Source of the DNA: Actinomycetota bacterium
GTDB lineage: Bacteria > Actinomycetota > Actinomycetes > Nanopelagicales > Nanopelagicaceae
Direction of reading: 5' to 3'
Length of the DNA: 47,284 nt
Assembly (NCBI GenBank): GCA_026392845.1
Contig: JAPLBJ010000070.1
Location: forward strand, 1 to 47,284
The notes beneath the pieces are model-generated. The model worked only from the letters and a program-made list of their open reading frames with translations. It was not told where the DNA came from and made no database searches. The position numbers were made by a program, and so were the translations under genes. Shown piece by piece: positions 26,981-30,857 of the stretch (position 1 is the first letter of the stretch; every line of letters starts with the position of its first letter).

Positions 26981-28054
26981 GTGGTTCGTGTCACAGGAAA
27001 TTTTCGAAAAGAGAGCCCTCTCCATCCCAAGGCTGAGGCAGCGCTTTTGGCTGCATTTGATGCCGGTTGGGCTGATCCACGCAAACTTTCATCATCCTCA
27101 TCAAAGGCACATCACATGCGCCAAGAAGCCCTGGAATCAATTGCTCATCAATTATCACTTCGCTCCGATGAGATTGAAATTCTAGGTGAACCACTTCTGG
27201 GCCATTTCTTATCGATAGCAGGACTGGCGACATCCCCTGATACAAAGATTTTTTATTCAGCAACTTCACGTAGTGAAGTCATCGCAACTGCACGTTCTTA
27301 TGACCCTGTAGAACTTCCCGTTGATATTCGAGGAAATATTGAGTTCTCCCCTAGTTCCCAATCCGGTGTTTTAGCCCTGCAAATCGCTAATGGCGAAACC
27401 GGAACAATTGCGCGAACCGATGAAATATCAAAACTCTTTCCTGACTGCCTCATTGCTTGCGATGCGACAACAACCCCGGATGCATCACTACTTCCATCGC
27501 GATGGGATAGCGCAATCTTTGATTCGGGGTCGTGGGCTGGGCCATCTGGCATCGGAATTCTTGCAATACGCAATTCTAAAGTCTGGAAAAATCCACTACC
27601 CCACATTGGAATTTCACGAGTCCCACAGAGCTATTCACTACCTCTTCTTCTCTCCTCTGTTGTCGCACTAGAAGCGTGGAAATCTGATCTCAGTGAAGAT
27701 TTGCGATTGCGTGATTTGAGCGCGCAACTACGTTCGCGAATTGCAAGCTCTGTGAGTGATTGCGACATAGCTGGAGAACTCGATTCATCTCTTGGCAATA
27801 TCACTTCATTTTCATTTCTATATTGTCATGGCGAGGAACTTCTGCGTGAACTTTCCATTAGGGGTTTTGATCTGGATTCAGGTTCGGCATGTACATCTGA
27901 TGATTTAGCCCCAAGTCACGTACTTGCTGCAATGGGAATACTCACTCACGGCAATATTCGAGTGACGATTCATCGAGGAACCACTAGCGATGAGATTGAG
28001 GAATTAGGCACTGCAATTATTGAATCGGTTGCGCAGATGCGGGCTAGAAATTGA
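26981..28054 (+). CDS. Cysteine-desulfurase-like pseudoenzyme lacking the PLP lysine
   Basis: A 357-residue protein with the aminotransferase class V / IscS-NifS layout, starting at GTG. The persulfide-carrying loop is intact (SGSACTS, Cys304, then PSHVLAAMG), as are the DA of the PLP-ring Asp (Asp161), the ANGETG block and the C-terminal NIRVTIHRG. The PLP-binding segment aligns without gaps to the IscS family as FDSGSWAGPSGIG, where the invariant His-Lys is Gly183-Ser184. The catalytic His region reads SATSRSE, with Arg97 in place of His. The N-terminal substrate block and the GATEANN phosphate-binding region are also unrecognisable. A conventional PLP desulfurase reaction therefore looks impossible. 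It is followed by an overlapping tusA, and related actinobacterial proteins are, from memory, one chain with TusA. It may act as a sulfur acceptor or scaffold. Confidence 0.8.
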   Translation: MVRVTGNFRKESPLHPKAEAALLAAFDAGWADPRKLSSSSSKAHHMRQEALESIAHQLSLRSDEIEILGEPLLGHFLSIAGLATSPDTKIFYSATSRSEVIATARSYDPVELPVDIRGNIEFSPSSQSGVLALQIANGETGTIARTDEISKLFPDCLIACDATTTPDASLLPSRWDSAIFDSGSWAGPSGIGILAIRNSKVWKNPLPHIGISRVPQSYSLPLLLSSVVALEAWKSDLSEDLRLRDLSAQLRSRIASSVSDCDIAGELDSSLGNITSFSFLYCHGEELLRELSIRGFDLDSGSACTSDDLAPSHVLAAMGILTHGNIRVTIHRGTTSDEIEELGTAIIESVAQMRARN

Positions 28055-28257
28055 AGGAAGTAGATAGTCGCGGAAAACGCTGTCCTGCGCCGATTATTGA
28101 TTGTGCTGCGGCTATAGCAAACGTTGAGTCAGGTGTATCAATTCTTTTGCTTAGCGATGATCCAGCAACACTTCCCGACTTGCTGGCATGGGCGCGCATG
28201 ACAAATAATTCAGCAATTCAAATCAGTGAAGAATCTTTTCAAGTAACAAAAAGGTAA
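28051..28257 (+). CDS. tusA: TusA-family sulfur carrier protein
   Basis: A 68-residue TusA protein. The active cysteine is Cys11 in GKRCPAPIID, and the SDDPATLPDLLAWA strand-helix block matches TusA. It begins at TTG, overlapping the stop codon of the desulfurase-like gene (ATTGA at 28050-28054) and in the -1 frame relative to it, so it is either translationally coupled or a fusion partner separated by a single-base change. TusA proteins accept persulfide sulfur from a desulfurase and pass it on in tRNA thiolation or cofactor synthesis. Its stop abuts that of the convergent kinase (TAATTA at 28255-28260). Confidence 0.88.
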   Translation: MKEVDSRGKRCPAPIIDCAAAIANVESGVSILLLSDDPATLPDLLAWARMTNNSAIQISEESFQVTKR

Positions 28258-29241
28258 TTAATTTGGCTTTCCGATATGGGCTGCAATCTCAGAAGCAGCA
28301 CTCTCGCCATAAGCCTCTGAAAAGCGCGCAACGAACTCTTCATTTGTAAATCGATACTCCTGTGTACCTAAAGTTTCAATTACATATGTTGCAATCATTG
28401 AACCTAACTGGGCACATCGTTCATGGCTAAGTCCCCATGCAAGACCCGCGATAAAACCTGATCTAAATGAATCTCCAACACCTGTTGGATCAATCTTTGC
28501 ATTCTCTTTAGGCACTCCTACTTTGATTACTTCTGTACCTATACCTTCAACGACTGCACCATTAGAACCATGTGTAACAACTCGATATTTCACACGAGAC
28601 AATATTTCAGCATCACTCCAGCCCGTTTTTTGCATAGCGAGTGCGAGCTCATATTCATTGAGAAATAGATATGTTGCGCCATCAATAAGAAGTTTGATTT
28701 CATCACCATTCATTCGCGCCATCTGTTGCGATGGATCGGCGGCAAATGCAATTCCTTCGCTGCGACAGACTTCAGAATGATGAAGCATCGCTTGCGGATC
28801 ATCGGGTGAAATAACAACCATGTCGAAGCGTCCAGTTTTGGCCATGATTGGCGCTAATTCAATATTGTGAGCTTCACTCATTGCACCTGGGAAAAAAGAT
28901 GCAATCTGATTGAGCGATGTATCAGTTGTCACCATAAAGCGAGATGTGTAGAGCTCCTTGGATTTATAAACATGTGCTGTATCAACGCCATGGCGAACTA
29001 GCCATGCATCGTAATCAGCCCAGTCAACGCCAACTGCTGCAATAAGAACAGGATTGAGACCAAGTACTCCCATGCCGTAAACAATGTTGGCAGCACAACC
29101 ACCACGGCGAATATCTAAGCTATCGACAAGAAAAGAGAGCGATACTTTCTCAAGAGAACCTTCAACTAGGGAATCAGTAAATTTTCCCGAGAAGGTCATG
29201 AGATGGTCGATACCAACAGAACCTGCAACGCCTATTTTCAT
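28258..29241 (-). CDS. PfkB-family carbohydrate/nucleoside kinase, adenosine-kinase-like
   Basis: A 327-residue ribokinase-fold enzyme. It has the N-terminal G-G-x-A-x-N motif (RRGGCAANIVYGMG, about residues 46-59) and the C-terminal anion-hole/catalytic motif DPTGVGDSFRSGFIAG (about residues 252-267). In mycobacteria the gene at this relative position (Rv2202c, near ctaC and erpA) is an adenosine kinase, so adenosine or another nucleoside is the best substrate guess; sugar kinase is possible. It lies 31 bases downstream of erpA, probably as one transcript. Confidence 0.82.
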   Translation of the reverse strand: MKIGVAGSVGIDHLMTFSGKFTDSLVEGSLEKVSLSFLVDSLDIRRGGCAANIVYGMGVLGLNPVLIAAVGVDWADYDAWLVRHGVDTAHVYKSKELYTSRFMVTTDTSLNQIASFFPGAMSEAHNIELAPIMAKTGRFDMVVISPDDPQAMLHHSEVCRSEGIAFAADPSQQMARMNGDEIKLLIDGATYLFLNEYELALAMQKTGWSDAEILSRVKYRVVTHGSNGAVVEGIGTEVIKVGVPKENAKIDPTGVGDSFRSGFIAGLAWGLSHERCAQLGSMIATYVIETLGTQEYRFTNEEFVARFSEAYGESAASEIAAHIGKPN

Positions 29242-29272: not shown

Positions 29273-29632
29273 TTAGTTGAATGAATCGCCGCAAGCACAA
29301 GAACCTTGTGCATTTGGATTATCAATTGTGAATCCCTGCTTTTCAATAGTGTCAACGAAATCGATAGTTGCACCAGATAGATATGGATCACTCATCTTGT
29401 CAGTAATAACTTTGACCGCACCGAATTCGCGAATTACATCGCCATCCATGTTGCGATCATCGAAATAGAGTTGGTATCTAAGACCAGAGCAACCACCAGG
29501 CTGAACTGCAACACGAAGATTGAGATCATCGCGACCCTCTTGAGCAAGAAGCGCGGCTACCTTTGCAGCGGCTACATCTGTGAGTGCAATTCCTGTTGTT
29601 GTACTTGTGGTGCTTGTTGTCTCAGTTGTCAT
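29273..29632 (-). CDS. erpA: Iron-sulfur cluster insertion protein ErpA/HesB family
   Basis: A 119-residue A-type carrier. The three conserved cysteines are Cys48 (GGCSGLRY) and Cys112/Cys114 (GSCACGDSF) and would bind or transfer the cluster. The N-terminal dozen residues are almost all Thr and Ser, an unusual extension. An ATG six codons upstream exists, but GGGGAG on the minus strand at 29638-29643, five bases from the ATG at 29632, sets the start. It lies opposite nadA, whose product is itself a [4Fe-4S] enzyme and a plausible client. Confidence 0.94.
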   Translation of the reverse strand: MTTETTSTTSTTTGIALTDVAAAKVAALLAQEGRDDLNLRVAVQPGGCSGLRYQLYFDDRNMDGDVIREFGAVKVITDKMSDPYLSGATIDFVDTIEKQGFTIDNPNAQGSCACGDSFN

Positions 29633-29717
29633 TTTTTCTCCCCGTTTCAAGGCATAACTCTACCGCCATCCCCTTATTGAGGCGACACAAACACTATTTC
29701 TGCGAGAGAATAGCGCT

Positions 29718-30857
29718 ATGGCAATGAGTGACTTACTTCTCCTTGGACAAGGCGCCGACCTTTCAAGTCAGCGCGGAGTCTCATGTACTGGAAAGCTGCC
29801 CGAAGTAAGCGACCCTGCTCTTGTTGAACGAGCAAAGATTGCCCGAGCCTCATTAGGAGATCGCGCAATTGTCCTAGGTCATCATTATCAACGCGATGAA
29901 GTTATCGATTTCGCAGATATCACTGGCGACTCATTCAAGCTTGCTCAAGCTGCTGCTGCACAAAGTAGCGCAGAGTATGTAATTTTTTGCGGCGTTCACT
30001 TCATGGCTGAAAGCGCGGACATTCTTACATCCAAAGAACAAAAGGTTATTCTTCCTGACCTTGCTGCCGGTTGTTCTATGGCAGATATGGCAACAGCAAA
30101 TCAAGTAAACGAATGTTGGAAATCTTTAGAAGAAGTTGGCGTTGCACCAAAGACGATTCCAGTGACATATATGAATTCATCTGCTGCAATCAAAAGTTTT
30201 ACAGGCGAACACGGTGGCACAATATGTACATCATCAAATGCCGAAAAAACTATGCGATGGGCACTAGAACAGGGTGAAAAGATTCTCTTCTTACCTGATC
30301 AACATTTAGGTAGAAACACTGCTGTCTTATCTCTTGGTCTCACCCTTGATGATTGCGTCTTATGGAATCCATGGAAGCCAATGGGTGGGCTAACTCCCCA
30401 AGATATACACAAAGCAAAAGTTATTTTGTGGCGCGGCCACTGTTCGGTCCACGGAAGATTTACTCTCGATTCAGTCAACGAGATTCGCTCACGCGTACAA
30501 GGCGTTCAAGTGCTTGTACATCCTGAATGCCAACATGATGTTGTATCGGCAGCTGATGTAGTTGGCTCGACTGAGAGAATCATTCAAACTGTAAGTAACT
30601 CCCCTGCTGGCAGTAAATGGGCAATCGGTACAGAGCTCAACCTTGTCTCTCGCCTTGCGAAAACAAACCCAGATAAAGAAATTTTCTTTCTTGATAAGGC
30701 CGTGTGTTACTGCTCCACAATGAATCGCATTGATCTACCCCACCTTGTCTGGGCTATGGAATCACTCGTGGCCAACCATGTTGTCAATCAAATCCAAGTC
30801 AGTGATGAGGTTGCCCGTTTCTCTAAACTCGCTTTAGAAAGAATGCTGGCTCTATAG
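29718..30857 (+). CDS. nadA: Quinolinate synthase
   Basis: A 379-residue [4Fe-4S] enzyme that condenses iminoaspartate with dihydroxyacetone phosphate in de novo NAD synthesis. The cluster ligands are expected at Cys119 (AGCSMADM), Cys242 (GHCSVHGRF) and Cys330 or Cys332 (CYCSTMN); this spacing matches the known NadA pattern. HHYQRDEVIDFADITGDS is the family's N-terminal block. The nadB and nadC genes are not in the window. Its last codons contain the -10-like element of the next gene. Confidence 0.95.
   Translation: MAMSDLLLLGQGADLSSQRGVSCTGKLPEVSDPALVERAKIARASLGDRAIVLGHHYQRDEVIDFADITGDSFKLAQAAAAQSSAEYVIFCGVHFMAESADILTSKEQKVILPDLAAGCSMADMATANQVNECWKSLEEVGVAPKTIPVTYMNSSAAIKSFTGEHGGTICTSSNAEKTMRWALEQGEKILFLPDQHLGRNTAVLSLGLTLDDCVLWNPWKPMGGLTPQDIHKAKVILWRGHCSVHGRFTLDSVNEIRSRVQGVQVLVHPECQHDVVSAADVVGSTERIIQTVSNSPAGSKWAIGTELNLVSRLAKTNPDKEIFFLDKAVCYCSTMNRIDLPHLVWAMESLVANHVVNQIQVSDEVARFSKLALERMLAL

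What the first reader, a model, noticed from the sequence alone, without database searches (positions are those of the whole stretch)
26981..28054. Cysteine-desulfurase homolog that has lost the PLP lysine but kept the persulfide cysteine
Seen: gap-free alignment with the IscS-type segment (F-S-x-H-K-x2-GP-x-GIG) puts Gly183-Ser184 where His-Lys binds PLP. The catalytic-His region has Arg97, and the N-terminal and GATEANN blocks are gone. The Cys304 loop (SGSACTS) and the C-terminal NIRV segment are intact. Known: group I/II desulfurases need that lysine. Inference: this is a PLP-free sulfur acceptor or scaffold that feeds the adjacent TusA, or it binds PLP non-covalently. Selection has kept the frame open and the swinging-loop Cys, so it does not look like simple decay. 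It may be a new role for the fold in streamlined actinobacteria.
Basis: partly seen in the sequence, partly recalled or inferred. Interest (0 to 1): 0.8.

Follow-up and report, generated by a model that had tools for sequence, protein, structure and literature searches.

The report
Lysine-less desulfurase that keeps its cysteine
In several actinobacterial families an enzyme that should strip sulfur from cysteine has lost the lysine it needs, yet it keeps its sulfur-carrying cysteine and often a partner gene, which suggests it became a sulfur relay or docking protein.

Summary
Window 26981-28054 encodes a 357-aa IscS-fold protein with Ser184 where E. coli IscS has Lys206; the active-site His and phosphate loop are also replaced, while Cys304 and Arg327 (IscS Arg354) remain. 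It is not a lone mutant: of 176 distinct orthologues fetched, 40 keep the lysine and 136 do not, and Cys304 is 176 of 176. dN/dS is 0.055-0.116. The gene lies in a conserved block (ctaC-X-tusA-pfkB-hesB-nadA). Lysine-less copies occur in 10 of 30 sampled families. An rpoB tree needs six changes and rejects one lysine-less clade; the gene tree alone does not. SufS and IscS genes lie elsewhere. TusA, where found, lies beside X (3 of 27 genomes). tusA loss goes with changes near residues 280 and 321, never at Cys304. Best reading: a catalytically dead orthologue of a TusA-linked desulfurase, kept as persulfide relay or dock. Lysine-less IscS is known from Archaeoglobus, so this is a new variant. 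PLP binding and sulfur source are untested.

The parts
26981..28054 (+). X: lysine-less IscS/NifS-fold protein, 357 aa, GTG start
27530..27532 (+). Ser184 codon, where IscS has PLP lysine Lys206
27521..27523 (+). Asp181 codon, at IscS Ser203 (Ser in 40 of 40 lysine-bearing, Asp in 106 of 136 lysine-less orthologues)
27269..27271 (+). Arg97 codon, at the active-site His
27461..27463 (+). Asp161 codon (IscS Asp180 position, pairing by recalled motif), kept in 174 of 176 orthologues
27890..27892 (+). Cys304 codon, at persulfide Cys328; 176 of 176; loop 303-311 has pLDDT under 50
27959..27961 (+). Arg327 codon, at IscS Arg354; 173 of 176
27818..27823 (+). residues 280-281, changed in most orthologues without tusA
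27941..27949 (+). residues 321-323 (LTH), changed in most orthologues without tusA
28051..28257 (+). tusA, 68 aa, CPxP motif; overlaps the end of X
   Evidence: PF01206 49.5 bits; only TusA match in the genome
26158..26922 (-). ctaC (cytochrome c oxidase subunit II; name by recall), divergent upstream neighbour
   Evidence: synteny
28258..29241 (-). pfkB-type carbohydrate kinase (name by recall), conserved neighbour
   Evidence: synteny
29273..29650 (-). HesB/IscA-type protein, conserved neighbour
   Evidence: PF01521 67.5 bits; synteny
29718..30857 (+). nadA quinolinate synthase (name by recall), conserved neighbour
   Evidence: synteny

Best explanation
X is the syntenic orthologue of an actinobacterial IscS-type protein that elsewhere keeps the full desulfurase active site and a TusA partner. 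In the window's family, and separately in several other families, it has lost the PLP lysine, most of the phosphate-binding residues and often the catalytic histidine, so it should no longer desulfurate cysteine by the IscS route (shown for the residues, inferred for activity). It keeps the mobile persulfide cysteine and the arginine at IscS Arg354. It most likely acts as a PLP-independent persulfide relay or docking subunit: Cys304 takes sulfane sulfur from a donor (another desulfurase, or a small persulfide) and passes it to TusA where TusA exists, and to another acceptor where it does not (inferred).
For: Cys304 176/176, Asp161 174/176, Arg327 173/176 across 40 lysine-bearing and 136 lysine-less orthologues. 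Passages of PMC9978102: E. coli IscS H104Q, Q183E and K206A have no desulfurase activity; all three positions are replaced here. dN/dS 0.055-0.116 against five relatives. ctaC or pfkB seen beside X in 40/40 lysine-bearing and 136/136 lysine-less loci. tusA adjacent in 39/40 lysine-bearing, 12/14 lysine-less of other families, 69/118 of f1; fused in frame in 8 lysine-bearing loci, all of family f19. TusA in 3 of 27 chosen genomes, each time beside X, in none of the 8 without X. tusA presence changes at least 8 times on a tree of 97 f1 and 3 other rows; position 280 is changed in 40 of 41 tusA-less and 0 of 59 tusA-bearing rows. SufS and IscS genes with the lysine elsewhere. At least 6 changes of the lysine state on rpoB, AU p 8.7e-44 for one clade.
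Against: No activity, PLP or binding data. X is kept without any TusA match in 16 of 27 genomes examined, so the acceptor there is unknown. X is absent from some near-complete genomes of the window's genus, so it is dispensable. Asn137 and Asp161 stay conserved, which could mean PLP or another ligand still binds; E. coli IscS K206A still holds some PLP. The gene tree alone does not reject one loss (AU p 0.279). The tusA-coupled positions were picked on the same data by mutual information; only five independent pairs lie on well-supported branches, too few for p under 0.05; tusA-less L208 keeps Leu280 and Tyr281, and tusA-less L026 keeps Leu321.
Confidence: 0.5

Rival explanations
1. X works like Archaeoglobus IscS: no sulfur release, but Cys304 serves as a cluster ligand or docking residue for an Fe-S (or other metal) assembly partner.
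For: A. fulgidus IscS has Asp for the lysine, lacks desulfurase activity and gives a Cys ligand to the [2Fe-2S] cluster in IscU (PMC7585200, passages). It is the top PDB sequence match. A HesB/IscA-type gene lies close by, two genes between. Residues 280-281 and 321-323 align beside IscS Glu309 and Glu347, which contact IscU in E. coli.
Against: No IscU-type gene lies beside X; the SufU-like gene is in the suf operon (name by recall). The linked small protein is TusA. A. fulgidus IscS has Leu at the position of Arg327, which X keeps.
Confidence: 0.17
2. Reductive decay: once the lysine is lost the gene is on its way out, next losing tusA and then X itself.
For: 19 of 104 good genomes of the order sample have no match at 1e-30. 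Eight X-lacking genomes of the window's genus have ctaC next to pfkB. tusA presence changes at least 8 times, read as losses. Four listed matches in the order and one carry a single stop.
Against: dN/dS well under 1 and similar to ctaC. Cys304 stays fixed in 118 full-length f1 sequences of 43 percent mean pairwise identity. All 15 genera of the order sample still have the gene.
Confidence: 0.17
3. X still binds PLP non-covalently and catalyses a slower or different reaction on cysteine or a persulfide.
For: Asn137 and Asp161 kept in nearly all. E. coli IscS K206A still binds some PLP (passages).
Against: Phosphate anchors are mostly replaced (Asp at 181 in 106 of 136; Thr72 kept in 6 of 136), and position 97 is Arg or Lys in 121 of 136 lysine-less rows. 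Some lysine-less rows outside f1 do keep His97 (7 of 14) and Thr72 (5 of 14).
Confidence: 0.1
4. Another lysine, Lys35, forms the Schiff base in the window's family.
For: Lys35 is the only lysine kept in over 60 percent of f1 (109 of 118 full-length), and it is Arg in 39 of 40 lysine-bearing orthologues.
Against: 13 of 14 lysine-less orthologues of other families have Arg there, so it cannot serve them; Arg to Lys is a mild change.
Confidence: 0.04

Closest known systems
Archaeoglobus fulgidus IscS (PDB 4EB5, 4HVK; 4R5F is its D199K mutant) and Methanosarcina acetivorans IscS1
   Same: IscS-type protein with the PLP lysine absent; in A. fulgidus the Cys loop is kept
   Different: Archaeal, with an IscU partner; A. 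fulgidus keeps the active-site His and the SGATEANN loop and has Leu where X has Arg327. X is paired with TusA and has lost that loop.
E. coli IscS-TusA (PDB 3LVJ)
   Same: IscS-fold protein with a persulfide Cys and a TusA partner
   Different: IscS has Lys206 and is active; TusA docks on its large domain plus the Cys loop of the other subunit, whereas tusA-coupled positions in X align to the small domain near the IscU face.
Lysine-bearing actinobacterial orthologues (for example L110, L112, L119)
   Same: Same gene by synteny, same tusA partner, same Cys loop
   Different: They have the SGT phosphate loop, VEHS histidine and SAHKWGGP lysine motif. Their activity is inferred, not tested.

Membership tests
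Group I cysteine desulfurase (IscS/NifS) | Class-V aminotransferase fold of IscS | tested here: met
Group I cysteine desulfurase (IscS/NifS) | PLP Schiff-base lysine (Lys206) | tested here: not met
   Ser184
Group I cysteine desulfurase (IscS/NifS) | Active-site His104 and Gln183 | tested here: not met
   Arg97 at the His (A. fulgidus alignment); Thr164 at Gln183 (session alignment; pairing by recalled motif)
Group I cysteine desulfurase (IscS/NifS) | PLP phosphate loop and Ser203 | tested here: not met
   GEPLLG and Asp181
Group I cysteine desulfurase (IscS/NifS) | Persulfide Cys in a mobile loop | tested here: met
   Cys304, 176 of 176; loop pLDDT under 50
Group I cysteine desulfurase (IscS/NifS) | NCBIfam equivalog score | tested here: not met
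   Best NifS 89.7 bits against cut-off 530.75
Group I cysteine desulfurase (IscS/NifS) | L-cysteine desulfurase activity | not testable with these tools
   needs purified protein
Archaeal lysine-less IscS (A. fulgidus type) | Lysine lost, Cys loop kept | tested here: met
Archaeal lysine-less IscS (A. fulgidus type) | IscU partner gene alongside | tested here: not met
   neighbours are ctaC and tusA
Archaeal lysine-less IscS (A. fulgidus type) | Cys as cluster ligand | not testable with these tools
   needs anaerobic complex
TusA sulfurtransferase (gene 28051-28257) | TusA domain and CPxP Cys | tested here: met
   PF01206 49.5 bits, cut-off 28.6; RCPAPI motif; NCBIfam TusA equivalog not reached, 29.2 of 78 bits

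The most novel reading that the evidence does not exclude
A desulfurase has been turned, several times independently in Actinomycetes, into a PLP-free persulfide-handling protein: the catalytic half is discarded, the sulfur-carrying loop and the Arg354-type arginine are kept, and sulfur is received from another donor and passed to TusA or to an unknown acceptor.
Probability: 0.4. Interest if true: 0.78.

Novelty: new variant of a known kind. Interest (0 to 1): 0.62.

Why it matters
Cysteine desulfurases are treated as PLP enzymes by definition, and one source names many of these proteins cysteine desulfurase. A conserved lysine-less lineage with a fixed persulfide Cys, repeated in different families, would separate the sulfur-relay function of the fold from its chemistry. 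It also gives natural replicates: lysine kept or lost, tusA kept or lost, X lost. These make the question of what the Cys loop does without PLP directly testable, and they warn against predicting desulfurase activity from the fold.

Tried and rejected
Chance or lone mutation: rejected. Frame error: rejected, 13 of the 14 best homologues have the same 357-aa length. Lysine shifted by one residue: position 183 is Lys in 39 of 121 but Arg in 59 and Thr, Gly, Gln or other in the rest, so it is not required. Single ancestral loss: rejected on the rpoB tree, not rejected on the gene tree; both are told. A first rpoB tree was discarded: two groups stood over six changes per column apart, which I judged to come from taking the longest open frame, on the wrong strand, in about ten rows; its p value is not used. 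A residue labelled R379 in my scripts is IscS Arg354 by the alignment. Literature listings that showed no report of this family: and passages of the review PMC8300815; the library is open-licence only, so absence there is weak. SCO2157, guessed from memory as the Streptomyces gene, gave no paper.

Loci L009-L088 carry no family code and were counted to f1 by similarity. Of the 184 class genomes with matches only part was read for the lysine. The rpoB genomes were chosen to include the lysine-less families, and 6 of 30 gave no rpoB, so f22 and f23 are not on that tree. dS in four of the five dN/dS comparisons is 1.4-1.9, near saturation. The 27 genomes were picked by me, 16 of them because their X locus lacked tusA or was of such a clade. 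Rows dropped before the gene trees: partial L204, a duplicate and extra f19 rows, and 34 long-branch or redundant rows. Names of neighbours (ctaC, pfkB, nadA, mnmA, SufU) are recalled, not from a family search. Family f19 is taken to be Streptomyces by guess.

Full report

Residues. The phmmer alignment to E. coli IscS pairs Ser184 with the PLP lysine Lys206, Gly183 with His205, Asp181 with Ser203, Cys304 with Cys328 and Arg327 with Arg354; in the A. fulgidus alignment GEPLLGHF stands at SGATEANN and Arg97 at the active-site His. Passages of PMC9978102 report that E. coli IscS H104Q, Q183E and K206A have no desulfurase activity, that R354K is fully active, and that K206A still holds some PLP. 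All three activity-killing positions are replaced here (the Gln183-Thr164 pairing rests on a recalled motif), so classical desulfurase activity is very unlikely; PLP binding is not thereby excluded.

Not a lone mutant. Of the 120 listed homologues (4504 hits) plus the query, none has Lys at 184 and all 121 have Cys304. In 176 distinct orthologue sequences from 214 session loci, 40 have the lysine and 136 do not. Cys304 is 176/176, Asn137 175/176, Asp161 174/176, Arg327 173/176. Position 181 is Ser in 40/40 lysine-bearing rows and Asp in 106 of 136 lysine-less rows; His97 is 39/40 against 7/136. Lysine-less rows are 122 counted to the window's family f1 and 14 from nine other families (f22, f23, f29, f31, f32, f33, f39, f41, f44); 20 other sampled families keep the lysine. 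No alternative lysine is conserved throughout: the only one kept in over 60 percent of f1 is Lys35 (109 of 118), which is Arg in 13 of 14 of the other lysine-less rows.

Same gene. Lysine-bearing and lysine-less members sit in one block: ctaD and ctaC divergent upstream, then X, tusA, a pfkB-type kinase, a HesB/IscA-type gene and nadA. ctaC or pfkB was seen beside X in all 176 distinct loci; a few loci lack one of them at contig ends or otherwise (L117 and L122 show no ctaC). This argues for vertical descent. In a class-wide draw 184 of 296 genomes have a match at E 1e-40; in a phylum draw 11 of 197, one of them outside the class. In the order sample 15 of 15 genera have it, and 85 of 104 good genomes at E 1e-30.

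How many losses. On the gene tree (57 rows, trait columns removed) the lysine state needs seven changes (bootstrap range 6-8, 0 of 200 bootstrap trees with one), but the AU test does not reject one lysine-less clade (p 0.279). On an rpoB tree of 24 of 30 requested genomes the state needs six changes (bootstrap range 6-6), well-supported branches alone force four, and one lysine-less clade is rejected (p 8.7e-44). With conserved synteny the simplest reading is repeated loss. Horizontal replacement in place is not formally excluded.

Selection. Pairwise dN/dS of X against five relatives (L009-L013) is 0.055-0.116, like ctaC (0.079-0.114) and above ctaD, pfkB and nadA (0.023-0.052); tusA is 0.055-0.156 in the four with a value. 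dS is 0.52 in one pair and 1.4-1.9 in the others, so only the first is free of saturation. Cys304 is 118 of 118 in full-length f1 sequences whose mean pairwise identity is 43 percent.

TusA. tusA lies directly behind X in 39 of 40 lysine-bearing loci, 12 of 14 other lysine-less loci and 69 of 118 f1 loci with room, and is fused in frame in 8 loci, all of family f19. In 27 chosen genomes examined with the Pfam TusA model, 3 have TusA, each next to X; 16 have X and no TusA match; 8 have neither. In those 8 the ctaC and pfkB genes are adjacent with no X or tusA match between them. So in this sample TusA depends on X, but X does not depend on TusA. On a tree of 97 f1 and 3 lysine-bearing rows tusA presence changes at least eight times; position 280 is Leu or Met in 59 of 59 tusA-bearing rows and in 1 of 41 tusA-less rows; in five independent pairs on supported branches the two go the same way in 4.6 on average and the other way in none, too few for p under 0.05. 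The positions were picked by mutual information on the same loci, so this is post hoc. Over all sets 321 is Leu in 116 of 120 tusA-bearing rows and 2 of 52 tusA-less rows, while Cys304 is 52 of 52 in the latter. Outside f1 three loci lack tusA: lysine-bearing L120 (Pro280, Glu321) and lysine-less L210 (Asp280, Ala321) show the change; L208 has Ala321 but keeps Leu280 and Tyr281. L120 suggests that the coupling is separate from the lysine. Residues 280-281 and 321-323 align to IscS 306-307 and 348-350, next to Glu309 and Glu347, which contact IscU in the E. coli complex, whereas E. coli TusA docks mainly on the large domain (PMC2854127 section 7, read in full). A different TusA dock in Actinomycetes is therefore a testable inference.

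Rest of the genome. A SufS gene lies in a suf operon with a SufU-like gene, and an IscS gene lies beside an mnmA-like gene; both have the His-Lys motif. So X is probably not needed as a housekeeping desulfurase.

Mechanism. Shown: residue losses, fixed Cys loop, selection, tusA linkage. Inferred: no desulfurase activity; Cys304 carries a persulfide or docks an acceptor. I prefer a persulfide relay or dock (0.5) over an A. fulgidus-like ligand or scaffold (0.17), decay (0.17), non-covalent PLP enzyme (0.1) and Lys35 Schiff base (0.04).

Known background. A. fulgidus IscS has Asp for the lysine, lacks desulfurase activity and gives a Cys ligand to the IscU cluster; M. acetivorans IscS1 also lacks the lysine (PMC7585200, passages; the A. 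fulgidus papers were seen only in its reference list). X differs in partner (TusA), in keeping the Arg at 327, and in its lost phosphate loop. Searches for a paper on this actinobacterial family gave none in their listings.

Noticed in passing
L010, L011, L028, L029, L039, L086: Records titled Bifidobacterium breve or Streptomyces griseus MAGs carry a lysine-less X and neighbours like those of the window's freshwater actinobacterial family; the organism names look wrong.
   Followed up: no
X residue 321 in tusA-less rows: 34 of 52 tusA-less orthologues have Pro at 321, possibly convergent over several tusA losses.
   Followed up: partly
window 26981-28054, residue 35: Arg35 of lysine-bearing orthologues is Lys in 109 of 122 rows of family f1, coincident with loss of the PLP lysine there.
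   Followed up: partly
G454:C249:9047-10138: One genome of another class of the phylum has an orthologue-level match (E 3e-53); its lysine state was not read.
   Followed up: no
G000: The window's assembly gave no rpoB match at E 1e-50, so it is probably incomplete there.
   Followed up: no
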